Source of the DNA: Lachnospiraceae bacterium
GTDB taxonomy: Bacteria; Bacillota; Clostridia; Lachnospirales; Lachnospiraceae
Length of the DNA stretch: 64,000 nt
Assembly (NCBI GenBank): GCA_017622875.1
Contig: JAGAQG010000046.1
Location: 1 to 64,000, forward strand
Direction of reading: 5' to 3'
The notes under the pieces were generated by a model that did not search any database, was not told the DNA's origin, and was given only the letters and a program-made list of their open reading frames with translations. Position 1 is the stretch's first letter; each line of letters starts with the position of its first letter. Positions 16,767-30,380 of the stretch are shown here, piece by piece. Both the position numbers and the translations under genes were made by a program.

Positions 16767-16769
16767 TAT

Positions 16770-17805: not shown

Positions 17806-17857
17806 TTTGTAAAACTTTCCAGTAGAATTCAATAATTAAATATTATAAAATACCAAT

Positions 17858-18055: not shown

Positions 18056-18056
18056 G

Positions 18057-18074
18057 TGTCCCAGTTCTGGGACA
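18057..18074. repeat. Palindrome after the small XRE gene
   Basis: TGTCCCAG-TT-CTGGGACA has perfect 8-base arms and begins just after the stop codon. Without a T tract it is not a clear terminator; it may be an operator or an RNA stability element. Confidence 0.4.
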
Positions 18075-18201
18075 AATTCCAAATTCCTGTAAGTTCATTA
18101 ATTTCCACTCGTATTCTTTATATAAGACAAATGCGAATAATTGTCAGATTTATTCTTGAAATTACCAAATTCTTATAGTATATTAAATACAAGAAAGAAA
18201 T

Positions 18202-18215
18202 CGAACAAATGTTCG
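18202..18215 (+). promoter_or_regulatory. LexA (SOS) box
   Basis: CGAACAAATGTTCG matches the Gram-positive LexA/DinR consensus CGAAC-N4-GTTCG at every fixed position. It lies 22 bases before the ATG of the 31-residue gene at 18238, so that gene is predicted to be switched on by DNA damage. Confidence 0.75.
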
Positions 18216-18237
18216 CCAAAGAACGGAGGCGGAAACA

Positions 18238-18332
18238 TGAATTACTTAAAGGAAATAAAGGCAATGTTAAAGCAGCTTAACGAGGAAAAATTGAAGTATG
18301 TTTACTACTTTATCAAAGCCATGCTGGACTAG
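18238..18332 (+). CDS. SOS-controlled 31-residue protein
   Basis: Encodes MNYLKEIKAMLKQLNEEKLKYVYYFIKAMLD, shown here in outline only: an amphipathic charged helix followed by an aromatic helix with YVYYFI. Small proteins of this pattern occur in many clostridial phages and elements. GGAGG precedes the ATG by about 8 bases, and a perfect LexA box lies 22 bases upstream. The stop codon is inside the terminator stem shared with the convergent repressor gene. Its place beside the CI-like repressor and its SOS box suggest a part in prophage induction, which is inference. Confidence 0.65.
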
Positions 18333-18353
18333 ACGTGAGTCTAGTCTTTTTTT
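18327..18353. terminator. Bidirectional terminator between the SOS gene and the repressor
   Basis: GACTAGAC pairs with GTCTAGTC around a GTGA loop and is followed by seven T residues on the plus strand. Both convergent genes end within or next to the stem. Confidence 0.85.
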
Positions 18354-18712
18354 GTAAAACTGATGGCAAGTTTCTCTAACATTTCCCACTGCTCTACATC
18401 CAAATCGGCGAGAGCTTCTACAAACCGCACCCGGTAAGACTCATCTTCTTCTTTCATAAGTTCACCAAGAAAAGAAGCAATTTTTTCGCGCCTGGTTAAA
18501 GAAACAAACATTTCACCAGTGCCATTTTTTAACCATTCTTCGGAAACGCTATATTCACGACATATGGAACGTAACATCTGATCGGTAAGATTTCGATTAC
18601 CAACTTCTATATTAGAGATTGCAGTTTTGCCAACTCCTAATTTTTCTCCAAATTTTTCTAATGTAAGATTAAGCGATTTTCTAATTTCTCTAACTCGTTC
18701 GCCTTGAGTCAC
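18341..18712 (-). CDS. XRE-family (CI-like) prophage repressor
   Basis: 123 residues. The N-terminal HTH_3 domain (about 1-65) has KFGEKLGVGKTAISNIEVGNR as the helix-turn-helix. The C-terminal 55 residues are acidic and helical and contain no LexA-type peptidase, so the repressor is not self-cleaving and some other factor must relieve it during induction. The gene is divergent from the early operon and faces the promoter at 18800-18828. The start is preceded by AGGAGG (complement of CACCTCCT). It is the most likely lysogeny repressor. Confidence 0.85.
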   Translation of the reverse strand: MTQGERVREIRKSLNLTLEKFGEKLGVGKTAISNIEVGNRNLTDQMLRSICREYSVSEEWLKNGTGEMFVSLTRREKIASFLGELMKEEDESYRVRFVEALADLDVEQWEMLEKLAISFTKKD

Positions 18713-18799
18713 ACTTAGTCACCTCCTAACTTTTTTATAAGCATATCACGTGGAATAATTAAAAGCAAGAAAAAAGTCCACAAAGAATACAAAAAGTTA

Positions 18800-18828
18800 T
18801 TGACAAGGTTCACGAAGTGTAATATGAT
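18800..18828 (+). promoter_or_regulatory. Strong early promoter with overlapping operator
   Basis: TTGACA and TATGAT are 17 bases apart. Between them lies the near-palindrome TTCACGAAGTGTAA (18809-18822), well placed for a repressor to block RNA polymerase. It reads away from the CI-like gene into the early genes starting at 18870. Confidence 0.8.
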
Positions 18829-18869
18829 ATCCACATAGAAAACAAAAGCATTTACAGAAAGGAGAAGAA

Positions 18870-19022
18870 ATGGAAGAAAGAGAAAAGGAGATTCTAAGAA
18901 CAATTTCTGATGCTTATCCCAAAATGACGGACTTCCAAAAAGGATATTTGCTGGGAGTGGCAGAAAGTAAAGCAGCAGAAAAGATAGAAATGAAAAAGAA
19001 GCAAGATCCTGTAGCAGTCTAA
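18870..19022 (+). CDS. Small early phage protein in the Cro position
   Basis: 50 residues, starting MEERE and ending DPVAV. AAAGGAG lies 6 bases before the ATG. It contains the segment KMTDFQKGYLLGVAESKA, a pattern common in small proteins that directly follow phage early promoters in Clostridia. It has no HTH that I can see. The function is unknown. Confidence 0.65.
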   Translation: MEEREKEILRTISDAYPKMTDFQKGYLLGVAESKAAEKIEMKKKQDPVAV

Positions 19023-19081
19023 GAAAGGGGGATGATTCCATTGAATATAGAATTTTTCCAAGGTTGGAGGTGTAGTGGTAG

Positions 19082-19267
19082 ATGGAATACGAAAGTATCC
19101 AAATGGAAAACGGTAAAATCTTTAGCGGAAAACGTATCGGAGAACTTGTTGAAAATATCATAAACAAATTCTCCGAAGAAAATCTAACCTGTAATGAAGG
19201 AAAGATTGTGTTAGCTAAGGCCATAGAAGTAATTGGCGGATACAGTAAAATTCAAAAAATAGATTAA
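19082..19267 (+). CDS. Small early phage protein
   Basis: 61 residues, with a helical segment RIGELVENIINKF and ending in GGYSKIQKID. GGAGG at about 19065 is somewhat far from the ATG. A 43-codon frame beginning at about 19032 behind AAGGGGG overlaps it in another phase, so the translated frame here is not certain. No function is known. Confidence 0.5.
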   Translation: MEYESIQMENGKIFSGKRIGELVENIINKFSEENLTCNEGKIVLAKAIEVIGGYSKIQKID

Positions 19268-19283
19268 AGGTTTTTACACCATT

Positions 19284-19469
19284 TTAACCAAAGTCTTCAG
19301 GGGTTAACTTGCTACTGACTTCTTGGATGCACTTTTTGCATATATCAGAGTTGTCTATATCTTCGCATCCTTTGCAGCAATAACCACCAAACAGAAGTTG
19401 ATGACAAAGAACTTTACGTTCTACTGAAGAACGTGGGCAGTATACAGATACAGAAATTTGTAATTTCAT
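19284..19469 (-). CDS. Small cysteine-rich protein on the opposite strand
   Basis: 61 residues with eight Cys, including YCCKGC and DICKKC, consistent with a small zinc-binding fold. GAGGAG lies 8 bases before the ATG. It is the only minus-strand gene within the plus-strand early region. It could be spurious, but the site and the composition support it. Confidence 0.45.
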   Translation of the reverse strand: MKLQISVSVYCPRSSVERKVLCHQLLFGGYCCKGCEDIDNSDICKKCIQEVSSKLTPEDFG

Positions 19470-19577
19470 AAATAAATCTCCTCATATTTAACATCAGATC
19501 ATAGCAGTGACCTGTAAAAGAAATTATATGGAGAAAGAAAGGGAAATTCAAGTGAAATGAAGGAGGGAAGTGCACTG

Positions 19578-19742
19578 ATGTACAAGGTTATACAATACAT
19601 CCTTACGTGGATACAGGTAATTTTAGAGGTATTTTCTATTTACATGTATTGCGAAAGAAAGTGGAAGCCAGAAACCACAACCATAGTGTTAAAAGAGATA
19701 CATATAATCCTATTACTCTGTTGGATTTTATTGACAATTTGA
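19578..19742 (+). CDS. Small membrane protein
   Basis: 54 residues with two hydrophobic segments (VIQYILTWIQVILEVFSIYM and IHIILLLCWILL) separated by a charged turn. AAGGAGG lies 11 bases before the chosen ATG; a start at 19557 would place the site inside the gene. The function is unknown. Confidence 0.5.
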   Translation: MYKVIQYILTWIQVILEVFSIYMYCERKWKPETTTIVLKEIHIILLLCWILLTI

Positions 19743-19771
19743 TTCAAAGAGATTTGGAGGTACAGCGATAG

Positions 19772-19930
19772 ATGACAACATATTACAAAAGTTACGGAAT
19801 GTCAGCAAGTATCACAGAACATAGAAATGGCAGCGTTACGTTGAAAACTTGTTGTGGTAAAAGTAAGACAAAAAAGAAGTACGCCACCAAAAAGTTGGCA
19901 GAAAGAGCATGGAATAGGATGTGCTCATGA
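19772..19930 (+). CDS. Small basic phage protein
   Basis: 52 residues, strongly basic in the second half (GKSKTKKKYATKKLAERAW), suggesting nucleic-acid binding. GGAGG lies about 13 bases before the ATG. Its stop overlaps the next start by ATGA. The function is unknown. Confidence 0.5.
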   Translation: MTTYYKSYGMSASITEHRNGSVTLKTCCGKSKTKKKYATKKLAERAWNRMCS

Positions 19931-20010
19931 AAATATGTAAGTGCCCAGATACAACACCAACGCAAACTGTACTGGCATTCCTACATAAATTAAAAGAAAA
20001 AAAGGAGTGA
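19927..20010 (+). CDS. Very small frame coupled to its neighbours
   Basis: 27 residues, beginning MKICKCPDTTP. It starts in an ATGA overlap with the previous gene and ends inside the ribosome binding region of the next. Its reality rests on this tight packing only. Confidence 0.35.
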   Translation: MKICKCPDTTPTQTVLAFLHKLKEKKE

Positions 20011-20015
20011 TTTGT

Positions 20016-20195
20016 ATGGCTATAGCAGCAGAATATAAAATCGGTCAGACTTCGGTAGTCATACATGATGACTACTGTAAGGATCAGACACAGGAAGAAG
20101 TTGAGACTATTTTGAACAATATATCTCGTATTGCTTCAAGACATCTGAGAGAAGAGATGTACCGAAAAGAATTAGAGAAACAAAAGGCTATTTAA
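20016..20195 (+). CDS. Small early phage protein
   Basis: 59 residues: a short beta-like start (IGQTSVVIHDDYC) followed by a charged helix with EEVETILNNISRIASRHL. AAGGAG is 8 bases from the ATG at 20016, which is preferred over an in-frame GTG at 20007. A terminator-like hairpin overlaps its 3' end. The function is unknown. Confidence 0.6.
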   Translation: MAIAAEYKIGQTSVVIHDDYCKDQTQEEVETILNNISRIASRHLREEMYRKELEKQKAI

Positions 20196-20206
20196 GAGCC
20201 TTTTGC
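20182..20206 (+). terminator. Hairpin terminator before the tRNA-like region
   Basis: AAAAGGCT pairs with AGCCTTTT over a 7-base loop, and the downstream arm itself ends in four T residues. The stop codon of the preceding gene is in the loop region. Confidence 0.6.
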
Positions 20207-20211
20207 AATAT

Positions 20212-20350
20212 GGCACGAGAAACGGACTCGCGGGAGTCCAAAACTAACCTTTTGTTTGCTGGCATGAGCAAAAGAACTTCCTCTTAATGTTAATGTGAAA
20301 AATAATACCTGTTCAAAATCATAAATCCGGTTCGAATCCGGCTCGTGTCA
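20212..20350 (+). other. tRNA-like structure with an oversized or disrupted middle
   Basis: GGCACGAG (20212-20219) pairs with CTCGTGTC (20342-20349), followed by A, like an acceptor stem. Just before the 3' arm, CCGG-TTCGAAT-CCGG (20327-20341) is a T arm with the universal TTCGAAT loop. The 107 bases between are too long for a tRNA body. They contain the hairpins GGACTC-GCGG-GAGTCC and CTTTTG...CAAAAG but no clear anticodon arm. It is either a degenerate or interrupted phage tRNA or a tRNA mimic. The gene-free stretch continues to 20565, with a hairpin around 20352-20375 and a G/C-rich region before the next gene. Confidence 0.45.
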
Positions 20351-20565
20351 TTTTGGCTGTACGCATGCAGCCAAAGCCATAATAAAAGCAATCCTTTTAT
20401 TTTGTACAACACATGCGAATATTTGTGTCCGCCTGCATCTGGCACAAGGAAGTGGCTATCCAGATGGCCACGGACTGTTTCACGAAAGAATAGATGTAGG
20501 GAGCGGGATAAAAGGGGTTTTAAGTGAGAGTCCTCCCCTCCCGCCCATAGAAAAGGAGAAAGACT

Positions 20566-20757
20566 ATGAATGAATATAAGGAAAAACTGAAAATTTTTTT
20601 AGAATTTCACGCCAATAAATACGAAGAAGAATCCGTGAAAGAAATGAAAAGTTATGAAAGACACCTGATGATAGGTGCATTGCTTTTTGCAATGAATGCA
20701 AAGATTATCACCCCAATAGAAGAGGAGAAATTCAGCCGAATCTATATTAAAAGATAA
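20566..20757 (+). CDS. Small phage protein, first of a gene-plus-tRNA pair
   Basis: 63 residues: a charged N-terminal half and the segment YERHLMIGALLFAMNAKIITPIEEEKFS. AAGGAG precedes the ATG. It resembles the product at 20879 in layout (a helix, a small hydrophobic patch, then IT-x-EE-x-FS or LS), and both genes are followed at once by a tRNA, so the two units look like an old duplication. The function is unknown. Confidence 0.6.
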   Translation: MNEYKEKLKIFLEFHANKYEEESVKEMKSYERHLMIGALLFAMNAKIITPIEEEKFSRIYIKR

Positions 20758-20831
20758 TGCGCATTCGCCGAGCGGCAAGGCAGCAACACTTTTAATGTTG
20801 TTATACGTTGGCTCGAATCCAACATGCGCAG
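20758..20831 (+). tRNA. tRNA-Lys (TTT)
   Basis: Acceptor TGCGCAT pairs with ATGCGCA. The anticodon arm is CAACA-CTTTTAA-TGTTG with anticodon TTT, and the T arm is GTTGG-CTCGAAT-CCAAC. It begins on the base after the stop codon of the preceding gene. No CCA is encoded. It is closely related in sequence to the tRNA-Gln at 21064. Confidence 0.85.
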
Positions 20832-20878
20832 CTGATCGTAAGCCACAGGCGGTTAATATTGAAGAAAGGAGAATGACT

Positions 20879-21055
20879 ATGAAAGATTATAAAAAAGAGC
20901 TTATGAATTATTGCGACAAGGCTATGGAAAACGAATTTAGAGGAGAAGAAGCGAAGAAAGATGAGAGTTTTGGGGCTATTGAATTTGCGTTTTGGGCAGG
21001 TTTGATTACTAAGGAAGAAAGAGAAGAACTGTCTGAAAAATATCGGTTGGTATAA
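20879..21055 (+). CDS. Small phage protein, second of a gene-plus-tRNA pair
   Basis: 58 residues, acidic, with FGAIEFAFWAGLITKEEREELS near the C-terminus. AAAGGAG is 7 bases from the chosen ATG. It lies between two phage tRNAs and shares its layout with the gene at 20566. The function is unknown. Confidence 0.6.
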   Translation: MKDYKKELMNYCDKAMENEFRGEEAKKDESFGAIEFAFWAGLITKEEREELSEKYRLV

Positions 21056-21063
21056 CAAAACAT

Positions 21064-21135
21064 TGCGCATTCGCCAAGCGGTAAGGCACAGCACTTTGAT
21101 TGCTGGATTCCGGGGTTCGAATCCCCGATGCGTAG
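21064..21135 (+). tRNA. tRNA-Gln (TTG)
   Basis: Acceptor TGCGCAT pairs with ATGCGTA. The anticodon arm is CAGCA-CTTTGAT-TGCTG with anticodon TTG, and the T arm is CGGGG-TTCGAAT-CCCCG. The D arm is nearly the same as that of the phage tRNA-Lys, which points to a common origin. Confidence 0.85.
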
Positions 21136-21187
21136 TTTGTTGTGGCAATACAACAAAAAGCAATTACAGGAAAGTGAGGGAGTTTTG

Positions 21188-21370
21188 ATGATTATTACTT
21201 CATGCGGAATAATTGTTTTTCAACTCATCGAATGGATTGCGCCAGACACGAAATCCTTAACAAAGGTCTCTGAGGTAGGTTCTGGAGATAGATCAGCGTT
21301 TTCTATACCGGCAATACCGACGAGGCATGAAGTCACGTGTTTGTCGGCAGATAGAGAAGAACATACATGA
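21188..21370 (+). CDS. Possible small protein
   Basis: 60 codons starting MIITSCGIIVFQLIEW behind GGGAG at 6-base spacing. The first 16 residues are hydrophobic; the rest looks unlike a typical protein, with scattered Pro, Cys and Ser. The stretch could instead be non-coding RNA between tRNAs. No family was recognised. Confidence 0.3.
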   Translation: MIITSCGIIVFQLIEWIAPDTKSLTKVSEVGSGDRSAFSIPAIPTRHEVTCLSADREEHT

Positions 21371-21467
21371 TTGAAACAGATTAAACGCACAAAACTGTCG
21401 AGCATCGGTCTGCTGACGTTTACCACCCAAAATCCTCAAAATGTAAAAATATATCAGTTATCGATTA

Positions 21468-21507
21468 CATCGGGCTCATGGTTAGCACATATCCCATGCG
21501 CCTGATG
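21468..21507 (+). repeat. Long hairpin just before tRNA-Met
   Basis: CATCGGGC pairs with GCCTGATG and, inside that, CATGG pairs with CCATG, leaving a 12-base loop and one internal mismatch. It ends 5 bases before the tRNA. It may help tRNA processing or be a remnant of another tRNA; it has no T tract. Confidence 0.5.
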
Positions 21508-21511
21508 TTCC

Positions 21512-21585
21512 GGACCTTTAGCTCAGTTGGTTAGAGCACCGAGCTCATAACTCGGCGGTCCTGGGTTCGAGTCCCAGAAGGTCCA
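21512..21585 (+). tRNA. tRNA-Met (CAT anticodon)
   Basis: A standard 74-base tRNA: acceptor GGACCTT with AAGGTCC, D arm GCTC-AGTTGGTTA-GAGC, anticodon arm CCGAG-CTCATAA-CTCGG with CAT, and T arm CTGGG-TTCGAGT-CCCAG. An elongator tRNA-Met is most likely; a CAT anticodon could also be tRNA-Ile2 after lysidine modification. Confidence 0.92.
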
Positions 21586-21625
21586 TTTCATGCATGAAAA
21601 TTTAATAAAGAGGGAGCAAAGGAAG

Positions 21626-21772
21626 ATGAAACGAATCAAGAAATTCCTGAGAGACAACCAGTGGGCAATACTGGGAGCACTTGGGATACTGACATGGATT
21701 GCACTTGCATTGGAAGTCGCTGCAAGTGTTGCGGAAACAGTTGGATTTTACATTTTTATGGCAAATTTATAG
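21626..21772 (+). CDS. Small membrane protein
   Basis: 48 residues: a basic start (MKRIKKFLRDNQ) and one long hydrophobic segment, WAILGALGILTWIALALEVAASVAETV shown in part, then FYIFMANL. AAAGGAAG precedes the ATG. The function is unknown; similar one-helix proteins are frequent in early regions of clostridial phages. Confidence 0.55.
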   Translation: MKRIKKFLRDNQWAILGALGILTWIALALEVAASVAETVGFYIFMANL

Positions 21773-21822
21773 CGGACTGATAAACAGTCTGCTTTATTTG
21801 CACAAAAATCCGGAGGAAGACC

Positions 21823-22077
21823 ATGGATGAACTGGAAAAAGCATGGAAAGAAGCGAATTCAATGATTCCGGGAGACGAACCGGGAGGTCTGATATTCCTC
21901 GGAATCAAACCCACAGAGAATGACGACTACTACCTTTACCGTGAAGAGAACACAGAAAATTATTGGTACCAGTCAAAAGGAACGGAAACATTCCATAAGG
22001 AAATAAAAGAAAGAGAAAAGGAGAAGAAAGCATGTTCAAAAAGATTAGAGAACACTTTGAGAAAAGCCAGCGCGTAA
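21823..22077 (+). CDS. Phage protein of unknown function
   Basis: 84 residues, acidic in the first half (EANSMIPGDEPGG) and lysine/glutamate-rich at the end. CGGAGGA lies before the ATG. Its last 46 bases overlap the next gene in another frame, a larger overlap than usual, but both starts have good ribosome binding sites. Confidence 0.55.
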   Translation: MDELEKAWKEANSMIPGDEPGGLIFLGIKPTENDDYYLYREENTENYWYQSKGTETFHKEIKEREKEKKACSKRLENTLRKASA

Positions 22078-22298
22078 AGGGCCTTTCAAAAGCTATGTCA
22101 ATTGTAGATGAATATATGATGCCGGGACTGACTCCAGAAGCATTGGACCGCAACTATGGACAAGCCTATGCAGATATCAGAATGGTGTATATCAATGGCG
22201 ATATCACTGAGAACGAGATGTGGGCAGCAATCACAACTCTTGATAATCAGTATGATAAGCTTCGGCCAAGAGCTGTAGACGCACAATTATTTGCATAA
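22032..22298 (+). CDS. Phage protein of unknown function
   Basis: 88 residues, mostly helical, with FKKIREHFEKSQRVKGLSKA and a second half containing YGQAYADIRMVYINGDIT. AAAAGGAG is 9 bases before the ATG. It is the last gene before the hairpins and the replication gene. No family was recognised. Confidence 0.6.
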   Translation: MFKKIREHFEKSQRVKGLSKAMSIVDEYMMPGLTPEALDRNYGQAYADIRMVYINGDITENEMWAAITTLDNQYDKLRPRAVDAQLFA

Positions 22299-22303
22299 AA
22301 AAA

Positions 22304-22380
22304 GACTGGCATTCCTGCCAGTCCGGACCTCAAAAGTGAGATACTAAATCGCTAATAAAAGTATAACATGGCAGGTCCGA
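22304..22380. promoter_or_regulatory. Hairpin cluster before the replication gene; candidate origin
   Basis: GACTGGCA-TTCC-TGCCAGTC (22304-22323) is a perfect hairpin. Directly after it CGGACCT (22324-22330) is matched by AGGTCCG (22374-22380), and GGACCT recurs at about 22443. HUH replication proteins nick at hairpins, often near their own gene, so this is a candidate double-strand origin. The first hairpin could also simply end the upstream transcript. Confidence 0.4.
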
Positions 22381-22455
22381 AAACACAAGGAAAACAGCGG
22401 ATTTAAGGCCGCTATTAAAACTTGATAAAGATATTAAAGTTAGGACCTGAAGGAC

Positions 22456-23256
22456 GTGATAAAACGAAAAACATACACATTATGCAATGGTGATGTGATA
22501 GATGTACATGAATTCTATGATGGCAAGTATGGAGCTCCAGGAAAGAAAAGACAGAAGAAAAAGAAACCAACCAAGGAACAGATGCAGAAGGTCAATAAGG
22601 CAAATAAAGAAAGAATATGCCGACAGAAAATGTTGGAGTATTTCGATGCAGGAGATTGGCTATTTACACTCACCTATCAGACGAGATACAGACCGTTGAG
22701 CATGAAAGGTGCACTGGATCACTTCCAAAGGTTTGTGAGAAAGATTCGCAGAGGATATAGGAAAAGAGAGTACGAACTATTCTGGATAAGAAATATAGAA
22801 CTGGGAACAAGGGGAGCGTGGCATATTCATTTGGTTCTTAATGCAATTGAAGATACGCTAAAGCTTGTGAGTGAGGCATGGAAATATGGGTATGTTGATC
22901 ACATTGAGATTGGGAGAGACACGAGATATGATGAAGATTTCACTCAACTGGCTGCTTATCTGACAAAAGATGAAAATACCAGAGAAATCAAGAAGGATGG
23001 AACACTGGCTAAGCCAAAGATAAAGGAATCTAGTTATAACACATCCCGCAATATGCCTTTGCCGGAACCAGATGTGGACAAACTGTACCGCTGGAAGAAA
23101 GAGGTAAAACCAAAGAAGGGTTATTATATCGCCAAAAGCCATGAGGGAAATAATCCATACAATGATTGCAAATATAGGCGATACACTATGGTTCGGCTTG
23201 GAAGTAAAAAATACAAAGAATTAGAAGAAATGGGGTTGTTATGGAATTCAGCGTGA
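22456..23256 (+). CDS. HUH-type replication initiator (rolling-circle Rep-like)
   Basis: 266 residues. The lysine-rich N-terminus YGAPGKKRQKKKKPTKEQM is typical of a family of Rep-like proteins in clostridial phages. Motif II is WHIHLVL with the two metal-binding His; motif III with the likely nicking Tyr is in LAAYLTKD. These enzymes nick a DNA origin and stay covalently bound through Tyr. The GTG start lies immediately after AAGGA, so the site is close. It overlaps the next gene by 16 bp. No helicase or polymerase gene was found in the prophage. Confidence 0.75.
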   Translation: MIKRKTYTLCNGDVIDVHEFYDGKYGAPGKKRQKKKKPTKEQMQKVNKANKERICRQKMLEYFDAGDWLFTLTYQTRYRPLSMKGALDHFQRFVRKIRRGYRKREYELFWIRNIELGTRGAWHIHLVLNAIEDTLKLVSEAWKYGYVDHIEIGRDTRYDEDFTQLAAYLTKDENTREIKKDGTLAKPKIKESSYNTSRNMPLPEPDVDKLYRWKKEVKPKKGYYIAKSHEGNNPYNDCKYRRYTMVRLGSKKYKELEEMGLLWNSA

Positions 23257-23675
23257 ATATCTACATAGAGACCAGCCGAAGGGGACCGAGTAAAGGTCCG
23301 GGAAAGTATATGTATGTTCTGGAATACATTCTGAAGGACGGAACACCGTATACGGTGGACGGGACAGAAAGCTTCGAAGAAACTCGTGAAAACGAGCTTG
23401 CTTTAAAGGCGATTATAGCCGCAGGAAAGAGACTGACAAAACCATGTTCCATTCGGATATTTACTGGTTGTGATCACATTTTGAGTACGACACATAATGG
23501 ATGGTATATCGAATGGCAAAAAAACGGCTGGAAGAAGAAAAACGGGAAAGAAGTAAGGAACGCTGCATTGTGGGAAGAACTGGTAAATGTCATGGATTTG
23601 CATGCAGTGACTTATACAAAGGACGAGCATTCCTACAAACGATGGATGCGGGAAGAGTTAAGCAAAGGAGGATAG
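23241..23675 (+). CDS. RNase H-like fold phage protein
   Basis: 144 residues. The beta strands MEFSVNIYIETS and KYMYVLEYIL are followed by a helix ELALKAIIAAGKRL and a strand CSIRIFTGCDHIL, and the C-terminal half has EVRNAALWEELVNVMDLH. The arrangement and acidic residues match the small RNase H-like proteins common in Firmicute phages next to Rep genes. Cleavage activity is not proven by the motif alone. It is translationally coupled to the Rep gene. Confidence 0.6.
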   Translation: MEFSVNIYIETSRRGPSKGPGKYMYVLEYILKDGTPYTVDGTESFEETRENELALKAIIAAGKRLTKPCSIRIFTGCDHILSTTHNGWYIEWQKNGWKKKNGKEVRNAALWEELVNVMDLHAVTYTKDEHSYKRWMREELSKGG

Positions 23676-23724
23676 TTCTTAAACAATTTTTTTAGCAGTT
23701 AATCATATTTAGGAGGAATCACAG

Positions 23725-24333
23725 ATGAAAACATTATTAGAAAAGTTAGAGAATTTGATTGCAGAGTATAAAGAAAAACTGCAGGAGTCAGAAAATACAA
23801 AAGTGCAGCTGTCGGAACTGAAACCAGGAGATGTGTTCGAAACATCCTTTGGAGATTTGATCGTGCTGGAACATATCGGAGATAAAACAAAAGTGATCAC
23901 CAAAGGATTTACAAAAGAAAACCAGAGGTTTGACGAAGATTCTCCGAATTTTGCAACCTCAGAGATTTCAGAGTATTTATCAAAAGAAGTTCTTGAAATG
24001 TTTGAAAAAGAATTTGGATCAGAAAATGTTGTAGAGCATATTGAGGATGTGTTTTCAGTGGACATGCAGAAATATGATTCCTACATGGGAAAAATAAGAT
24101 TACTGACTTTTGAGGAAGCAAGAAAATACAATGATCTGATCGTAAATAAAGAATTACCAAGATGGTGGTGGACAATGACACCATGGAGCACAAAGGAACG
24201 TGGTTGGGAATATTCAATCACCGTTGTTTCCCCTTCGGGCATCATCAACGGCATTGAATGTGACAATTACTGCGGTGTTCGCCCAGTTTGTATCTTAAAA
24301 TCTAATATCTTTGTATCTAAGAAAAATGACTAA
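23725..24333 (+). CDS. DUF6273-like protein with a putative diversified C-type-lectin-like end (copy 1)
   Basis: 202 residues. A coiled-coil start (about 1-30) is followed by a domain with FETSFGDLIVLEHIG and a C-terminal segment RWWWTMTP...SITVVSPSG...GVRPVCIL. WWW followed by GVRPV at the end is a hallmark of DUF6273 and related C-type-lectin-like variable proteins. Bases 24221-24296 match the neighbouring gene's 24742-24817 almost exactly except in an 11-codon core. In that core all differences fall in codon positions 1 and 2. This is the pattern left by diversity-generating retroelements. No reverse transcriptase is in the window. Confidence 0.65.
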   Translation: MKTLLEKLENLIAEYKEKLQESENTKVQLSELKPGDVFETSFGDLIVLEHIGDKTKVITKGFTKENQRFDEDSPNFATSEISEYLSKEVLEMFEKEFGSENVVEHIEDVFSVDMQKYDSYMGKIRLLTFEEARKYNDLIVNKELPRWWWTMTPWSTKERGWEYSITVVSPSGIINGIECDNYCGVRPVCILKSNIFVSKKND

Positions 24334-24347
24334 GGAGGAAAAGGAAA

Positions 24348-24848
24348 ATGAAGAATGGAACAATTGTAGAAATCAATGGACGTAAATGGACAGTACTGGA
24401 TCAGACAGAAAAAGGTGTGTTCTGCATCTGTGAAGATATCGAAGATATGCGTTTCGATAAAGAATCAAATAATTATGCCAATAGTGCTATCAGAAAATAT
24501 CTGAATACAGAGTTTTTAACAGATATGGAAAGAGCCGTAGGAGCAGAGAACATTATTGCATTTGAAAGAGATCTGTTTTCTTTAGACGGACAGAAAGAAT
24601 ATGGAAAATGTGAAGATAAAGTGTCTCTGATCAGCGTAGATGAATACAGAAAATACAGAGAATATCTTCCAAATACCAAAAGATGGTGGTGGACGCTGAC
24701 ACCAGATAGTACAAAATGCAATGGTGATGAAATATGGGTAGCCGTTGTTTCCCCTTCGGGCTACATCTGCAGCTATGGATGTTACAATAGCATCGGTGTT
24801 CGCCCGGTTTGTATCTTTTCTCCTTCTATCTTTGAATCTGGGGTTTAA
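24348..24848 (+). CDS. DUF6273-like protein with a putative diversified C-type-lectin-like end (copy 2)
   Basis: 166 residues, lacking the coiled coil of copy 1. It starts TIVEINGRKWTVLDQTEKG, has DMRFDKESNNYANSAIRKYL, and ends with RWWWTLTP...AVVSPSG...GVRPVCIF. AGGAGG precedes the ATG and the gene is 14 bp after copy 1. The N-terminal parts of the two are clearly diverged, whereas the DNA around the variable core is nearly identical even at silent positions. That points to recent copying of a shared cassette. The ligand is unknown. Confidence 0.65.
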   Translation: MKNGTIVEINGRKWTVLDQTEKGVFCICEDIEDMRFDKESNNYANSAIRKYLNTEFLTDMERAVGAENIIAFERDLFSLDGQKEYGKCEDKVSLISVDEYRKYREYLPNTKRWWWTLTPDSTKCNGDEIWVAVVSPSGYICSYGCYNSIGVRPVCIFSPSIFESGV

Positions 24849-24861
24849 AAGAAATTGAGTA

Positions 24862-24939
24862 ATGAGAAGCGACGAAGTACATGAGCAGATTCTGGAACAG
24901 ATGGAAATGATAGATTTGACGGAGGCGATAGAAGAGTAG
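24862..24939 (+). CDS. Possible very small protein
   Basis: 25 codons starting MRSDEVHEQILEQMEM. It lacks a clear ribosome binding site and overlaps the region where the next gene should start. It may only carry the GGAGG site used by the downstream frame. Confidence 0.25.
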   Translation: MRSDEVHEQILEQMEMIDLTEAIEE

Positions 24940-24941
24940 CA

Positions 24942-25836
24942 GTGGATTTAGAACAGAAAGCAATTGAAAGAATAAAAACAGCTTCGGAGATGAGCTTGTT
25001 CTACTACAAAAAACCTCTTGTTTGTACATATTCGGGGGGGGAAGGATAGTGATGTAATGTTAGAGCTGTTCAAACGTTCTGGTGTTCCGTTTGAAGTGCA
25101 TAACAGCCACACAACAGCAGATGCACCGCAGACAGTATATCACATAAGAAAAGTATTCCGGGAGCTGGAACTACAAGGAATCAAATGTGATATTGACTAC
25201 CATTCGTTGGGAAATGGCAAACGACTTACGATGTGGAACCTGATTCCAGGAAAATTGATGCCACCAACAAGAATAGCTCGCTATTGTTGCTCTGTTTTAA
25301 AAGAGACTGGTGGGGCAAATAGAATGATTTCGACGGGGGTGCGCTGGGACGAAAGTAACAGTCGCGCAAATAGACAAGCTTATGAAGTTTTGGGAAGAAC
25401 CAAAAAGGACGCGATTGGAATTACAGATGAAAAAATGCTTCTTACAGACAATGGCGATATCAGAAAACTATTCGAACAATGCCAGTTAAAAGCAAAGACG
25501 GTTGTGAATCCGATTATCGATTGGAGATATTCTGATATCTGGGAGTTTTTAAAGGCAGAGAAGATAAAAACCAATGTTCTGTATGAATGTGGTTATCGTC
25601 GGGTTGGCTGCATTGGTTGCCCAATGGCATATAAAGCGCGTTGGAAAGAATTTGCGGACTTTCCGAAGTATAAAGAAGCATATATAAGATCGTTTGACAG
25701 AATGCTTGAAGTGAGAAGGGCAAAAGGTAAAGGTAATCAATGGAAGAATGGCCATGATGTATTCCTGTGGTGGATGGAAGATGACAACGTGGAAGGCCAA
25801 ATGAGCTTTGAAGATTTTCCGGAATTAGTAATGTGA
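24942..25836 (+). pseudogene. PAPS reductase-family protein, frameshifted at a G8 tract
   Basis: From the GTG at 24942 the frame reads through FYYKKPLVCTYSGG and then stops, because eight G residues (25034-25041) break the PP-loop motif SGGKDSD. With seven G residues the motif and the remaining 265 residues read in one frame. The downstream part has HSHTTADAP, GVRWDESNSR and the Cys-rich CGYRRVGCIGCPMA segment of phage phosphoadenosine-phosphosulfate reductase-like proteins. It could be a sequencing error, a decayed gene, or a switch by slippage in the G tract. The exact upstream start is uncertain. Confidence 0.75.
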
Positions 25837-25869
25837 AAATACGAAAAGGACATCCGAAGATGCCCTTTA

Positions 25870-25943
25870 TACGGATGATGGGACTCGAACCCACGACCAT
25901 GTCTTTATTAGAGACGCGCTCTATCCACTGAGCTACACCAATA
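25870..25943 (-). tRNA. Phage tRNA with apparent anticodon AAT (Ile), partly degenerate
   Basis: On the minus strand: D arm GCTC-AGTGGATA-GAGC, anticodon arm GTCT-CTAATAA-AGAC, and T arm GTGGG-TTCGAGT-CCCAT. The anticodon by position is AAT, which is rare in bacteria. The acceptor stem has one mismatch and two wobbles, and the closing pair of the anticodon stem is C-A. It may be a decaying phage tRNA. It faces the PAPS reductase-like gene. Confidence 0.6.
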
Positions 25944-26029
25944 GATATTTTAGTTGGAAATATTGAAAATGTCAAGAAAGGAGAGCGGAGCCGCTGCAGC
26001 TTAAAGGATATCCTGAGCTCCTTTCAAAG

Positions 26030-27196
26030 ATGGGAATAGGAAAAAACTGGACTAAAGAGGAAGAAGAATATCTGGCAGAAAAATGGGGAACGGTTTCTGT
26101 TGGAGCTATCGCAAAAAAACTTGGACGCTCGGAAAATGCGATTATAGTGCGCAAAGAACGCCTTGGTCTTGGCGCGTTTTTAGAAAGCGGAGAATATATC
26201 ACCTGGAATAAATTAAGCCTGGCACTTGGCAAAGGTACTGTTAGCGCTTATTGCATGACTTCGTGGGTCAAGAATAGAGATTTTCCGGTACATACAAAAA
26301 GAGTAAAGCAAAATACATATAAAGTTGTGTATCTGGATGAGTGGTGGGCATGGGCTGAAAAGAACCGGGATATACTGGATTTTTCAACATTTGAAGAAAA
26401 TGTTCTGGGAAAGGAACCGGAATGGGTAAAAGAAAAGCGTAAACATGATATTGAAAAGAAACAGAAATATATCACAACACCATGGACAGAAGCGGAAGAT
26501 AGGAAATTAGCACGTCTGGTTGCAAAACAGCAATATACCTATGATGACTTATCAAAGATGCTCCGGAGAACAAATGGAGCCATACAACGAAGATTGTGTG
26601 ATCTGCAGATAAAAGATAGACCGGTAAAAGCAGATAACCATACCAGATGGACAGAAGAAGATTTTGAACATCTCGGAGAACTGATAAAAGCCGGATACGG
26701 ATATGATCTGATGGCTGAAAGAATTGGCAAAAGCTCCAAGGCCTGCAGAGGAAGGGTTTACCAGATGTATCTGACCGAGAATCTCGATAAGGTCCGAGAG
26801 ATTATAGGTACCGGTAAATTTGGAGACAACAGGCCAGAACGAAAAATCAAGCAGTGGAACGTAATGAATACAGAAGAACGCATTGAGGCAAAGGATGAGT
26901 TGACCAAGCTGGTAGCAGTCCTGCAATGGAGATTCAAGCAGCAGATCAATGAAACAGAATGGGGAGAATTCTTCCAGAAAGATATGTGTGAGAATTTTGG
27001 TAGCAGTTGCCTGCAGACAGAGAGATGTGACTATTGTACAAATTTCAAGAGAATCCAACCGCAGAACTGCAAGATGTGCGGAAAGACATTCTGGGAGAAG
27101 AAAGAAAACCTATACTGTTCCACCTGCAGGGATATGAGAAAGAAGCAATGGCTGCGTAAGCGGTTTGTAATGGGAGGTAAAAATGGCAGAAATTAG
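26030..27196 (+). CDS. Phage DNA-binding protein with repeated Myb/SANT-like helices
   Basis: 388 residues. Three related helix-turn-helix segments are visible: WTKEEEEYLAEKWGTVSVGAIAKKLGRS (start), WTEAEDRKLARLVAKQQYTYDDLSKMLRRT (middle) and WTEEDFEHLGELIKAGYGYDLMAERIGKS. Each has the W-T-E/K-E-E/D start of Myb/SANT-like domains. The C-terminus is a zinc ribbon (CKMCGKTFW and YCSTCRDM). Such proteins are frequent in clostridial phages and may control replication or transcription; the exact role is unknown. The ribosome binding site is weak. Confidence 0.7.
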   Translation: MGIGKNWTKEEEEYLAEKWGTVSVGAIAKKLGRSENAIIVRKERLGLGAFLESGEYITWNKLSLALGKGTVSAYCMTSWVKNRDFPVHTKRVKQNTYKVVYLDEWWAWAEKNRDILDFSTFEENVLGKEPEWVKEKRKHDIEKKQKYITTPWTEAEDRKLARLVAKQQYTYDDLSKMLRRTNGAIQRRLCDLQIKDRPVKADNHTRWTEEDFEHLGELIKAGYGYDLMAERIGKSSKACRGRVYQMYLTENLDKVREIIGTGKFGDNRPERKIKQWNVMNTEERIEAKDELTKLVAVLQWRFKQQINETEWGEFFQKDMCENFGSSCLQTERCDYCTNFKRIQPQNCKMCGKTFWEKKENLYCSTCRDMRKKQWLRKRFVMGGKNGRN

Positions 27197-27410
27197 ATGT
27201 GAAGAATGCAATTACAAAGCATTCAGAGAAGATAAAGCAGGAGTAAACAGATGGTATTGCAAAAATCCGGCAGCAGAGTTTGCACGGAGTGAATGTGAAC
27301 CTACTCCGATGATCTGCAGAACAAAGAGGCATTCAAAGGAACTTACAATTAAAACGAGTCCTAAATGGTGTCCATTCAGAAGAAAACATATAAGTAACAA
27401 AGAGGAATAA
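27183..27410 (+). CDS. Small cysteine-rich phage protein
   Basis: 75 residues with six Cys (RCEECN, WYCKN, SECEP, MICRT, WCPFR) in a zinc-ribbon-like arrangement. It starts within the end of the SANT-like gene behind GGGAGG, so the two are coupled. The function is unknown. Confidence 0.6.
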   Translation: MAEIRCEECNYKAFREDKAGVNRWYCKNPAAEFARSECEPTPMICRTKRHSKELTIKTSPKWCPFRRKHISNKEE

Positions 27411-27412
27411 AC

Positions 27413-27676
27413 ATGGCATACACAGTAGAAGTAAAAAGCATCAGAGAAGTAGATTTAAGTATACTGCAGTTTCCGCAGGTAGCAGTCTATAACAGACCAG
27501 AAGATTATCCGGATAAAGCAGTTGCAAGAGTATTTGACAATGGACAGCCTACAAATATCATCATGGTAGCAGATAATCCAGATGATCTCAGATGGGATAT
27601 ACGTAAGTATACAAATCTTGTGTGGTGCCCAAGAGGAAAAGAGGATGTTCTTTCACTGGTAGGAGTTTATCTGTGA
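27413..27676 (+). CDS. Phage protein of unknown function
   Basis: 87 residues with a mixed fold, containing VDLSILQFPQVAVYNRPEDYPDKAVARVFD. GAGGAAT precedes the ATG. It overlaps the HNH gene at its stop (GTGA). No family was recognised. Confidence 0.6.
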   Translation: MAYTVEVKSIREVDLSILQFPQVAVYNRPEDYPDKAVARVFDNGQPTNIIMVADNPDDLRWDIRKYTNLVWCPRGKEDVLSLVGVYL

Positions 27677-28065
27677 AAAGCATCTTACATAACAAGAATG
27701 ACCGGACATGCTTTCTGTGCATGCTGCTGTATGACGACGATAGTTATAAGCAGGTCCTGGAAGAACATCATGTATTCTTCGGGAGGGCATTGAGAAAACT
27801 TTCGGAGAAATTTGGATTAAAAGTATATCTCTGTATTCCTCATCACCGGTTGAGCAAAGAAGCGGTACACCAAAACGCTCAGGTGAGCGGAATGGTCCAA
27901 GCCTATGCACAGAGAACTTTTGAAAAAAAGTTTCCGGAAAAGAACTTCCGAGAGATATTCGGAAAAAATTACATAATGGACGAAATAGAAGAAAATCAAG
28001 AAGAATCCGAACCGGTAGCAGGATTTACACCTATATCGGATGGAGTAGAAGGGATGGATTGGTAA
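27673..28065 (+). CDS. HNH-like phage nuclease
   Basis: 130 residues. NDRTCFLCMLL supplies the CxxC, EEHHVFFG has the HH of the beta-beta-alpha metal finger, and VYLCIPHHRLSKEAVHQN has the distal His pair. This small HNH family is common in Firmicute phages and may nick DNA during recombination or packaging. The GTG start at 27673 overlaps the previous stop and has AGGAG 8 bases upstream; longer frames from 27622 would lack this. Confidence 0.7.
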   Translation: MKSILHNKNDRTCFLCMLLYDDDSYKQVLEEHHVFFGRALRKLSEKFGLKVYLCIPHHRLSKEAVHQNAQVSGMVQAYAQRTFEKKFPEKNFREIFGKNYIMDEIEENQEESEPVAGFTPISDGVEGMDW

Positions 28066-28066
28066 T

Positions 28067-28204
28067 ATGCCAAAGAAGCTAAATGAAATGCAGAAAAGAA
28101 GTGACGATAAATTCTGCAGAAATAGAAAATATGCAGCATATTCGTTTAAAGCATCGGATGAGGTACGGGAAAGATTTAAACGTCCTGCATACGAAAAGAA
28201 ATAG
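28067..28204 (+). CDS. Small basic phage protein
   Basis: 45 residues, lysine/arginine-rich (MPKKLNEMQKRSDDKFCRNRKYA). It begins 2 bases after the HNH gene. No ribosome binding site is outstanding beyond GGATGG. The function is unknown; nucleic-acid binding is possible from charge alone. Confidence 0.45.
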   Translation: MPKKLNEMQKRSDDKFCRNRKYAAYSFKASDEVRERFKRPAYEKK

Positions 28205-28292
28205 AATTCATGCAAGTTAATTAATATATCACAACTGTTAGACTATCGCATGATTGTTAGTGGGGTGGGTGGCAGGCAGAAGGAGGTAGCAG

Positions 28293-28505
28293 ATGAAAAT
28301 TGGAGAAGCATGGTTAGTGTTTAATGATATCAACAATGATAAATATACAGACGAAGAAAAAGGCGAAGCAATAAAGATGATTGCTGATATGCCAACACAT
28401 AACAGTATTACGAAAGCTAAGATGCTGGATGTAATTAAGTACCTTTGGAATTTGTGTTTTGAAGAAGTGAAGGAGGAATCAGATGCAAGCGCAAGAAGCG
28501 ATTAA
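28293..28505 (+). CDS. Small phage protein of unknown function
   Basis: 70 residues beginning MKIGEAWLVFNDINND, with KGEAIKMIADM and LDVIKYLWNLCFEEV helices. AAGGAGG precedes the ATG. Similar proteins accompany zinc-ribbon genes in many gut phages. It overlaps the next gene by 23 bp. Confidence 0.6.
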   Translation: MKIGEAWLVFNDINNDKYTDEEKGEAIKMIADMPTHNSITKAKMLDVIKYLWNLCFEEVKEESDASARSD

Positions 28506-28737
28506 AGAGTTAAGTTATGACAACACAGCATATGGCGGTAAATGTACAAAAGAAGTAAGAGAAACTGCGATTAATGCACTGGAAAAGCAGAACCAAAAGA
28601 AACCAGTATATATAGGCGGAGACGGTATCAGATACACGGATTTGTACAGATGCCCAAATTGTGGGCAAGGTTTTACTGGAACCGGAATCGCAGATTATTG
28701 CTACCATTGTGGCCAGAAATTAGATTGGAGCGAGTGA
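28483..28737 (+). CDS. Zinc-ribbon phage protein
   Basis: 84 residues: a helical start (EAIKELSYDNTAYGGKCTKEVRETAI) and a C-terminal zinc ribbon with YRCPNCGQGF and YCYHCGQKL. GGAGG precedes the ATG. The function is unknown, perhaps nucleic-acid or protein binding. Confidence 0.65.
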   Translation: MQAQEAIKELSYDNTAYGGKCTKEVRETAINALEKQNQKKPVYIGGDGIRYTDLYRCPNCGQGFTGTGIADYCYHCGQKLDWSE

Positions 28738-28738
28738 T

Positions 28739-29158
28739 ATGGAAAGATTAACGATTGAAAAGATTAAGAGCCTTAAAGAAGCCATGAGAAGCAATATGAA
28801 TGTTTATTTTTATGATGATGTCATGAAAGTGTTTGATGAACTTTTGGAAAAAAGAAATGCCGAAGAACAGGGCTTGCTTCTGAGATTGCCTTGCAGATTA
28901 GGTGACATCATCGACAGAATTATATCTCATAACGAGATTGTTACATTGATGTTTGAAACCGAGGTATGTAGTTTTAGAGGTTTACAACGTTTTTGGCATG
29001 GAATGGCATGGAATATCCCGAAAGAATATTTGGAACTGCCATTTGTAAAAATTCATGGAGTTGTTCCAGATAAAATCACTGAAGCAGATACTATTTGGAT
29101 TGAAGTGAGAAAAGAAGCAGAACAGGCACTTGCAAGAATGGAGAAAGAGAATGGCTAG
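28739..29158 (+). CDS. Phage protein of unknown function
   Basis: 139 residues. A helical first part (EKIKSLKEAMRSN) and a beta-rich middle with LPCRLGDIIDRII and RFWHGMAWNIPKEYLELP. Its C-terminal 8 bases overlap the YopX-like gene. GGAGCGAG precedes the ATG. It was not assigned to a family. Confidence 0.6.
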   Translation: MERLTIEKIKSLKEAMRSNMNVYFYDDVMKVFDELLEKRNAEEQGLLLRLPCRLGDIIDRIISHNEIVTLMFETEVCSFRGLQRFWHGMAWNIPKEYLELPFVKIHGVVPDKITEADTIWIEVRKEAEQALARMEKENG

Positions 29159-29528
29159 AGAAATTTTATTCAAAGCAAAACGCAAGGATAATGGCGAATG
29201 GGTAGAAGGACTACCAGCGATATTTTGGGAAGAATATTATATGTTCAATCCAAATGATAAAAATATGGCATACGGGATAGATATCGATACTCTCTGCCAG
29301 TACACCGGACTTACCGACAAGAACGGTAATAAAATTTGGGAGCATGACATTATTAAATGCGGAATAAAAATGTATGTTTTCTGGGATGAACATTTTGCAA
29401 GTTGGTGTTTGACTAGAAAAGGATGGCTGTATAAGCATTTCTTTGGAGAGTCTCAGGAACCGGAAGATTGCGAAGTAATCGGAAACATCTTTGATAATCC
29501 GGAATTATTGGAGGACGAACATGGGTGA
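29151..29528 (+). CDS. YopX-family phage protein
   Basis: 125 residues with the family signature REILFKAKRKDNGEWVEGLP at the start and TLCQYTGLTDKNGNKIWEHDII in the middle, ending VIGNIFDNPELL. YopX proteins are widespread in Firmicute phages; their role is not established. The start at 29151 overlaps the previous stop codon and gives the canonical MAREILF N-terminus. Confidence 0.85.
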   Translation: MAREILFKAKRKDNGEWVEGLPAIFWEEYYMFNPNDKNMAYGIDIDTLCQYTGLTDKNGNKIWEHDIIKCGIKMYVFWDEHFASWCLTRKGWLYKHFFGESQEPEDCEVIGNIFDNPELLEDEHG

Positions 29529-29706
29529 ATATAAATGCACAGCTTCCATTGATGGAGTTTGTAGAAACGTGATTGGGAATGGTACGAAATGTAATGGGTT
29601 TAGTCAGGTGTGTAGATTGAGACCAACTTATGAAAAGTTGCAACAAATTGAAGAATCTTTGGAAAGTAAAATAAAAAACTGTTTCGGAATAAAAGGGGAT
29701 GTGTAA
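29521..29706 (+). CDS. Small cysteine-containing phage protein
   Basis: 61 residues with four Cys in the first half (YKCTASIDGVCRNV, KCNGF, QVCRL), suggesting a small metal-bound fold, then a helix. GGAGG is 6 bases from the ATG and overlaps the end of the YopX gene. The function is unknown. Confidence 0.55.
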   Translation: MGEYKCTASIDGVCRNVIGNGTKCNGFSQVCRLRPTYEKLQQIEESLESKIKNCFGIKGDV

Positions 29707-29707
29707 T

Positions 29708-29995
29708 ATGAGCAGATTAATTGATGCAGATAAAATTGACTTTAACGAAATATTTAAAGGACAATCGGACTTTGCGAAAGATACAAGAGAAGCAGCACAA
29801 AGTCTTATCGATGCACAACCAACAGTCGAAGCTGTTCCAGTGGTGCAGCTTGAATCTGTCTTAAAAGAAGCATATTTAGAAATCGCAAATGGATATTCAG
29901 TATCGGATTTACAGTCTGATAGTGACAAGGTTGCATGTGTGGCAAGTAAATTTCGCCAGACGGTATTAGATAAATTGCGAACTTCTGCGAAGTAA
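29708..29995 (+). CDS. Phage protein of unknown function
   Basis: 95 residues. SRLIDADKIDFNEIF and AAQSLIDAQPTVEAVPVV are the widespread start of small phage proteins that begin M-S-R-L-I-D-A-D. The C-terminal half is helical. AAGGGG lies 9 bases before the ATG at 29708. The role is not known. Confidence 0.6.
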   Translation: MSRLIDADKIDFNEIFKGQSDFAKDTREAAQSLIDAQPTVEAVPVVQLESVLKEAYLEIANGYSVSDLQSDSDKVACVASKFRQTVLDKLRTSAK

Positions 29996-30047
29996 ATGCG
30001 GAGTAGAACGGAGTAATGACGGAGTAGAAAGAATGTAGGTGAACAAA

Positions 30048-30380
30048 ATGAGCGAAATAAAACTTCTTAGATGCCCTTTCTGCGGTGGTGAAGCGGAATT
30101 ATTAAAAGGCCAGTGTGAAATTGATAACTATGTAATGTGCTTAGAGTGCAGAAGCAAGACAAAGCTTTACAACACAAAAGCCAGTGCAATAAAAGCATGG
30201 AACACCCGAATCCCAATGCAGAACATTGTGGAACGGTTGGAAGAAAAATCTGACTTTCATGTAAAATTAGCAAACTATGAAATGAATGTCGGAACTATCG
30301 TGGAAATGGAAAAACATAAAATGGCTATTGATGTATATTCTAAAGCAATCAAAATCGTAAAAGAAGAAGGTGGAGTATGA
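30048..30380 (+). CDS. Lar-like zinc-ribbon phage protein
   Basis: 110 residues. The N-terminal LLRCPFCGGEAEL, then MCLECRSKTKLYNTKASAIKAWNTR, is the Lar-family (restriction-alleviation-like) zinc-ribbon signature. A C-terminal helical extension (about 60-110) follows. Whether it acts against restriction enzymes is not known for the clostridial versions. It overlaps the next start by 4 bases. Confidence 0.7.
   Translation: MSEIKLLRCPFCGGEAELLKGQCEIDNYVMCLECRSKTKLYNTKASAIKAWNTRIPMQNIVERLEEKSDFHVKLANYEMNVGTIVEMEKHKMAIDVYSKAIKIVKEEGGV

What the first reader, a model, noticed from the sequence alone, without database searches (positions are those of the whole stretch)
24221..24817. Two adjacent genes carry the signature of diversity-generating retroelement variable regions, without a reverse transcriptase nearby
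Bases 24221-24240 and 24742-24761 are identical, and 24274-24296 and 24795-24817 differ at one base. Between them lie 11 codons (24241-24273 and 24762-24794) in which 8 codons differ. All 13 changed bases are in codon positions 1 or 2, and all third positions agree. In 11 of the 13, one copy has A. This is what mutation of adenines in an AAC/AAT-rich template produces. The proteins end in WWWT...GVRPV, a C-type-lectin-like pattern seen in DGR targets. The rest of the genes is far more diverged. No reverse transcriptase or template copy is in the window.
Basis: partly seen in the sequence, partly recalled or inferred. Interest (0 to 1): 0.87.

Follow-up and report, generated by a model that had tools for sequence, protein, structure and literature searches.

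The report
Orphaned hypermutation targets in a prophage
Two neighbouring genes in a bacterial virus genome bear the marks of a known gene-scrambling system, but the scrambling machinery itself is gone, and related viruses show that this loss has happened more than once.

Summary
The two genes (23725-24333, 24348-24848; both Pfam DUF6273) are variable-region (VR) targets of a diversity-generating retroelement (DGR), shown by homology. Related Clostridia phages carry the same tandem pair followed by avd, a template repeat (TR) and a reverse transcriptase (RT). The 13 VR differences all fall on template adenines in 9 of 14 such TRs, 12 of them in 3, 11 in 2. The prophage has no avd, TR or RT, and none was found in the 2.74-Mb assembly (87.7% complete). 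RT-less pairs sit at about three separate places among RT-bearing pairs. L139 lacks about 1.5 kb, almost exactly avd-TR-RT, against its near sister L141. Best reading: a two-target phage DGR whose machinery was lost, leaving its last variants fixed. Leftover DGR targets are known from Treponema denticola and cyanobacteria, DUF6273 targets from Faecalibacterium phages. What I did not find described is recurrent loss within one phage family. Rewriting in trans is not excluded.

The parts
15019..54046 (.). Prophage that carries the pair (approximate; attachment sites not mapped): serine integrase at 15019-16710 to endolysin at 53345-54046
   Evidence: Pfam Recombinase/Resolvase; PHROGs integrase, replication initiation, terminase, portal, tape measure, endolysin
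22456..23256 (+). Rolling-circle-type replication initiator upstream of the pair (context)
   Evidence: PF23343 E 8e-13, phrog_3584 E 2e-50
23241..23675 (+). RNase H-like gene upstream of the pair (context)
   Evidence: PF00075 E 4e-10
23725..24333 (+). g1: target gene 1, 202 aa, DUF6273, VR near the C-terminus
   Evidence: PF19789 E 1.4e-8, over the cut-off; phrog_9958; aligns with target 1 of RT-bearing relatives
24221..24284 (+). VR1 tract (variable core 24241-24273); the homology ends near where relatives' TR and VR also part, after GCCC
24348..24848 (+). g2: target gene 2, 166 aa, DUF6273, VR near the C-terminus
   Evidence: PF19789 E 5.2e-10, over the cut-off; phrog_9958 E 9e-50; aligns with target 2 of RT-bearing relatives
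24742..24805 (+). VR2 tract (variable core 24762-24794)
24849..24941 (+). Place where avd-TR-RT (about 1.6 kb) lies in relatives; here 93 nt with a 25-codon ORF (24862-24939) and no visible relic of avd
24942..25836 (+). PAPS-reductase-family gene directly downstream; frame interrupted at a run of 8 G (25034-25041)
   Evidence: PF01507 on 25018-25836; upstream in-frame piece and G run

Best explanation
The pair is the leftover target module of a two-target phage DGR. In the ancestral cassette (g1 - g2 - avd - TR - RT) an error-prone RT copied one adenine-rich template and wrote mutated copies near the 3' ends of both DUF6273 genes, so the two VRs differ only where the template had A (shown by homology with relatives' templates). 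In the lineage of this prophage avd, TR and RT were then lost while both target genes stayed intact (absence shown for the prophage; loss inferred from relatives). The VRs are most likely the last variants written, now fixed and kept by selection as ligand-binding proteins (inferred). The loss looks recent against the age of the lineage: no position of the tract outside the inferred template adenines differs between the two copies.
For: (1) The same gene pair followed by avd and RT in 22 of the 28 pairs kept for the tree, with a TR read for each of the 22. (2) The window's 13 differences lie on template adenines 13/13 in 9, 12/13 in 3 and 11/13 in 2 of 14 TRs (p 2e-9 to 3e-6). Of 7 further TRs: 13/13 in 1, 12/13 in 5, 4/13 in 1 (L143, an adenine-poor TR). 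(3) The window's VR1/VR2 profile (14 differences in 63 nt, 1 in a third position) lies in the range of 16 RT-bearing pairs (6-14 differences, 0-1 in third positions). (4) RT-less pairs (window, L065, L139, L140, L145) fall in about three places in the tree among RT-bearing pairs. (5) L139 against L141: about 90% identical on both sides, with L139:10531-10532 joined where L141 has 10529 and 12048, so avd-TR-RT is missing except the first codons of avd and the last of RT. (6) Outside the VR, g1/g2 of RT-less L139, L140 and L145 have pairwise dN/dS 0.17-0.50. (7) Zero differences at about 44 non-adenine sites (number taken from relatives' templates) give a 95% upper bound near 6.6% divergence between the copies, against a terminal branch of 0.58 aa/site.
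Against: The assembly is 87.7% complete, so an RT and TR elsewhere in the genome cannot be excluded. The window shows no scar of avd, unlike L065, L139, L140 and L145, and no close RT-bearing relative with the same flanks was found, so deletion is inferred here; transfer of g1-g2 alone is possible. The window sits beside RT-bearing L146 at the midpoint root with no support value. No reads were available, so 'fixed' is untested. Low dN/dS may partly date from before the losses. Function as ligand-binding virion proteins rests on DUF6273 precedent and weak PHROG matches; the pair sits among replication genes, not tail genes.
Confidence: 0.8

Rival explanations
1. The targets are still rewritten in trans by an RT and template elsewhere: in the unassembled part of this genome, another prophage, or a co-infecting phage.
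For: The VR tracts show no decay. Genome 87.7% complete. One TR serves two targets in the relatives, and contig IMGVR_UViG_3300029305_000529 has a further target-2-like gene about 3 kb before a target-1 gene. L140 and L145 share sequence at the deletion scar and are about 94-96% alike around it, yet their VR cores differ at 13/33 bases (3 in third positions, with a 3-nt length difference) and 10/33 bases (none in third positions).
Against: No RT, avd or further flank match found in the assembly. In L140's 201-kb contig the one other RT belongs to a cassette in whose surroundings no match to the pair's VRs was found. L140/L145 may instead be two separate deletions or a recombined module.
Confidence: 0.13
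2. Gene conversion between two paralogues, followed by positive selection at the ligand-binding loop; no DGR involved.
For: Explains identical flanks between diverged paralogues; no RT found in the genome.
Against: Does not predict that differences fall on the adenines of templates in relatives, nor zero third-position changes, nor that orthologous pairs sit in DGR cassettes.
Confidence: 0.02
3. The pair was acquired as target genes alone by recombination with an RT-bearing phage and never had its own machinery in this prophage.
For: No avd scar beside the window's g2; the pair has different neighbours in different phages.
Against: Four other RT-less pairs keep the start of avd, pointing to deletion as the usual route; a transfer would also have to end between g2 and avd, which lie 0-8 nt apart or overlap in most relatives shown.
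Confidence: 0.2

Closest known systems
DGRs with DUF6273 targets in Faecalibacterium prophages (two targets: Lelie, CP11; also Roos, Pioen) and gut phages nd4/nd12 (PMC11792537: outline, section 30 and passages seen; PMC10743442: passages seen)
   Same: DUF6273 target proteins; two targets per DGR in Lelie, CP11, nd4 and nd12; in the Faecalibacterium phages the VR maps to the C-terminus of the domain
   Different: Those have RT and TR; in the window neither was found. The window's pair is a tandem of two small proteins in a replication region
Target genes left in Treponema denticola isolates that lack core DGRs (PMC4891356, passages seen)
   Same: VRs differing from relatives' TRs mostly at adenines, with no RT or TR identified in those isolates; read by the authors as remnants
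   Different: Bacterial genes, most (62%) with lipoprotein signals; here a phage tandem pair, with a sister case in which the loss can be seen
Nostoc PCC 7120 all3226 (PMC7517822, passages seen)
   Same: Remnant TR-VR homology without a nearby RT; the authors suggest removal of the machinery once a good variant is selected
   Different: A dispersed paralogue in a cyanobacterial genome with other DGR variable proteins; single gene
BPP-1 phage DGR (mtd-avd-TR-brt; recalled, not fetched)
   Same: Order target-avd-TR-RT seen in the relatives
   Different: One target, a tail protein; machinery present

Membership tests
DGR target (variable protein) | VR differing from a homologous template mainly at template adenines | tested here: met
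   13/13 in 9, 12/13 in 3, 11/13 in 2 of 14 homologous TRs; the templates belong to relatives, not to this genome
DGR target (variable protein) | C-type-lectin-like (or Ig-like) scaffold carrying the VR | tested here: inconclusive
   DUF6273 by Pfam; CLec resemblance of DUF6273 is taken from PMC10743442 passages; no own fold could be made; no useful solved relative by sequence
Complete DGR | Reverse transcriptase in the same genome | tested here: not met
   RVT_1 and family RT model: none found in G000; assembly 87.7% complete
Complete DGR | Template repeat | tested here: not met
   Both VR flanks occur only at the two VRs in G000, up to 3 mismatches
Complete DGR | Accessory gene (avd or similar) | tested here: not met
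   Family avd model: none found in G000 (no positive control); none in window by tblastn
Complete DGR | Ongoing variation in VR | not testable with these tools
   No reads, no second strain; genus search held only this genome
PF19789 DUF6273 | Score over Pfam's cut-off | tested here: met
   35.2 and 39.9 bits against 23.5

The most novel reading that the evidence does not exclude
RT-less target pairs are a stable 'satellite' state: phages that have deleted the machinery keep targets with intact homing tracts, which are rewritten when a related RT-bearing phage shares the cell, so that L140 and L145 differ in their VRs although the machinery was lost before they split.
Probability: 0.12. Interest if true: 0.8.

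Novelty: new variant of a known kind. Interest (0 to 1): 0.5.

Why it matters
Surveys that start from the RT miss orphan targets; the passages seen of one large metagenome survey (PMC8144416) say it would not detect targets away from the RT. This family offers near sisters with and without the cassette, which makes an open question testable: do phages use a DGR for a time and then discard it once a good variant is found, or do orphan targets go on being rewritten in trans? It also raises what DUF6273 hypervariable proteins do when encoded among replication genes.

Tried and rejected
Rejected: gene conversion alone (see rivals); chance; 'A in 11 of 13' as proof (not distinctive). A trans DGR in L140's contig was tested: an RT lies about 21 kb from the pair with its own target and avd (and, by eye, a template), but no match to the pair's VRs was found in the 18 kb around it. 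A donor template holding 17 nt of the window's 5' flank plus template-type codons was found in two viral contigs only, those of L141 and L144. Their third positions disagree with the window's core at many codons (by eye), so they are not its source. The exact 20-base flank is in 5 viral contigs, those of L139, L140, L141, L144 and L145. A profile search of solved structures gave nothing useful (12 sequences at E up to 1, best 0.0085, an IgA protease). Single proteins as queries found few or no relatives. L007 is probably a spurious relative: the match lies on the strand opposite its large ORF.

Rows dropped: the tree used 28 pairs. Near-duplicates and more distant or fragmentary pairs among the loci were left out, and L008 was kept as 'unknown'. 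The VR1/VR2 profile leaves out L017 and L138 (tract not found in one gene) and L019, L026, L064, L139, L145 (unequal lengths). L031's TR was not scored against the window.

Full report
WHAT IS THERE. The finding's arithmetic is right in every detail. The two genes lie in one prophage: a serine integrase at 15019-16710, a rolling-circle-type initiator at 22456-23256, an RNase H-like gene, the pair, a PAPS-reductase-family gene, then terminase, portal, tape measure and endolysin. Both products are DUF6273 proteins over Pfam's cut-off and match phrog_9958, of unknown function; phrog_10993, Hoc-like head decoration, matches weakly (E 7e-5 and 5e-5). They are the only DUF6273 matches in the 2.74-Mb assembly.

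IS IT MORE THAN CHANCE. Outside the tract, 205 of 429 aligned codon bases of g1 and g2 differ, including 83 of 143 third positions. In the variable core, 13 of 33 bases differ and none of 11 third positions. At the outside rate, 0 of 21 third positions has a probability near 1e-8.

WHAT IT IS. A phage fragment from human faeces, MT839962, has the same tandem pair followed by the start of an avd-like gene. Scans with an alignment gave 45 loci in viral contigs and 14 in genomes, 6 of the 14 titled Lachnospiraceae and the rest other Clostridia, and more loci with better alignments. Of the 44 viral records behind the first scan, 28 hold an RVT_1 match, 27 over the cut-off; many records are fragments. 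In relatives the order is target 1, target 2, avd (123 aa), TR, RT (about 345 aa). L017's avd product reaches bAvd and 23S_rRNA_IVP only below their cut-offs (E 3e-4 and 4e-5); the two RTs scanned are RVT_1 over the cut-off. One search compared VRs with the downstream sequence in 24 loci. In 20 of the 21 RT-bearing ones a template was found, and in the ungapped alignments 5 of 7 to all of the mismatches lie at template A. In the 21st, L031, the template is a copy of VR1. The window, L065 and L008 (which ends in avd) gave no template.

THE DECISIVE TEST. I placed the window's 64-nt tract on 14 templates: all 13 differing positions are template adenines in 9, 12 in 3 and 11 in 2, with hypergeometric p from 2e-9 to 3e-6. 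L021 and L024 share a template and are not independent. Seven further templates gave 13 in one, 12 in five, and 4 in one, L143, whose template is itself poor in A. In 16 RT-bearing pairs with tracts of equal length, VR1 and VR2 differ at 6-14 of 63 bases with 0-1 third-position differences; the window (14 and 1), L065 (12 and 0) and L140 (14 and 1) look the same, while L008 (18 and 9) has drifted.

NO MACHINERY. RVT_1, a family RT model and a family avd model find nothing in the assembly. The first is backed by positive controls; the last two are not, as the tool points out. Both flanks occur only at the two VRs. The assembly is 87.7% complete, so this is strong for the prophage, whose contig is 80.6 kb, and weaker for the genome. 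The only genome held of the genus is this one. Of 397 genomes from the family, 3 including this one have a relative at E up to 1e-8.

LOSS HAS RECURRED. In a tree of 28 pairs without the VR (22 RT-bearing, 5 RT-less, 1 unknown), the RT-less pairs are the window (beside RT-bearing L146 at the midpoint root, without support value), L065 (with RT-bearing L034 and L066, support 100), and L139/L140/L145 (with RT-bearing L141, L143, L144, support 100; order within unresolved, values 46-47). L139 and RT-bearing L141 are about 90% identical up to L139:10532 / L141:10529 and again from L139:10531 / L141:12048: about 1.5 kb is missing, which is avd-TR-RT except the first eight or so codons of avd and the last codons of RT, with the downstream gene kept. 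L140, L145 and L065 also keep only the start of avd. The window does not, so its own route is less certain. L065's genome has no RVT_1 match, and the records of L139 and L145 have none. L140's record has one, from another cassette in whose 18 kb no match to the pair's VRs was found.

HOW IT MOST LIKELY WORKS. Shown: DGR-type VRs, two targets served by one template in relatives, no machinery in this prophage. Inferred: the machinery was deleted in this lineage after the last rewriting, and the proteins are retained as they stand. Pairwise dN/dS outside the VR is 0.17-0.50 among the RT-less L139, L140 and L145, so the proteins are constrained, though part of that may predate the losses. With no difference at about 44 non-adenine sites, the two tracts of the window diverged by at most about 6.6% since the last common template. 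That is little beside its 0.58 aa/site branch.

AN OPEN CLUE FOR TRANS ACTION. L140 and L145 share sequence just right of the scar, and are 94-96% alike around it, yet their VR cores differ at 13/33 and 10/33 bases. If the machinery was lost once, before they split, the VRs were rewritten without it in cis. Two separate deletions or module exchange explain it too.

WHAT THE PROTEINS DO. DUF6273 targets of other phages are taken as C-type-lectin-like proteins, receptor-binding or capsid-decorating (PMC11792537 section 30 and passages; PMC10743442 passages). Here the pair lies among replication genes. Of ten proteins picked near the pair in relatives, seven fall in the PHROGs category DNA, RNA and nucleotide metabolism and three are unknown. 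So a role inside the cell is as open as a role on the virion.

KNOWN AND NEW. Leftover targets without core DGR are described in T. denticola (PMC4891356, passages). Discarding the machinery after selection is suggested for Nostoc all3226 (PMC7517822, passages). I did not find recurrent loss in a phage DGR family described; the searches were made, in an open-access library only, of which I saw listings and passages. I therefore file it as a new variant of a known kind.

Noticed in passing
window 24942-25836: The PAPS-reductase-family gene has its reading frame interrupted at a run of 8 G (25034-25041); an assembly error, a decayed gene or a length-variable tract are all possible.
   Followed up: partly
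window 20758-25943: The prophage carries four tRNA genes (Lys, Gln, Met, Ile); the Ile anticodon is read as AAT, unusual for bacteria (recalled).
   Followed up: no
L031 10907-10979; L143 10900-10973: Templates of two RT-bearing cassettes have 15% A against 27-38% in 24 other RT-bearing ones. L031's template is identical to its own VR1 through the core but keeps the template-type 3' end, as if overwritten by a mutated copy: a second way for a DGR to fall silent.
   Followed up: partly
L139, L140, L145, L065 about 24-35 nt after the g2 stop: In all four other RT-less pairs the break lies (by eye) just after the first eight to twelve or so codons of avd; perhaps three separate events ending so close together are unexplained.
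   Followed up: partly
L067 11028-11512; L055 11060-11529: avd and an A-rich template are kept without an RT in the locus; no RVT_1 in the genome behind L067 or the record behind L055.
   Followed up: partly
L033 9965-10483 (contig IMGVR_UViG_3300029305_000529): A further target-2-like gene about 3 kb before a target-1 gene that is cut by the contig end; the cassette lies at the other end of the same contig, so it may be a third target if the contig is circular.
   Followed up: no
window 58365-62309: A 1314-aa protein outside the prophage begins like a DUF4062/NTPase-type protein (by eye, recalled); not searched.
   Followed up: no
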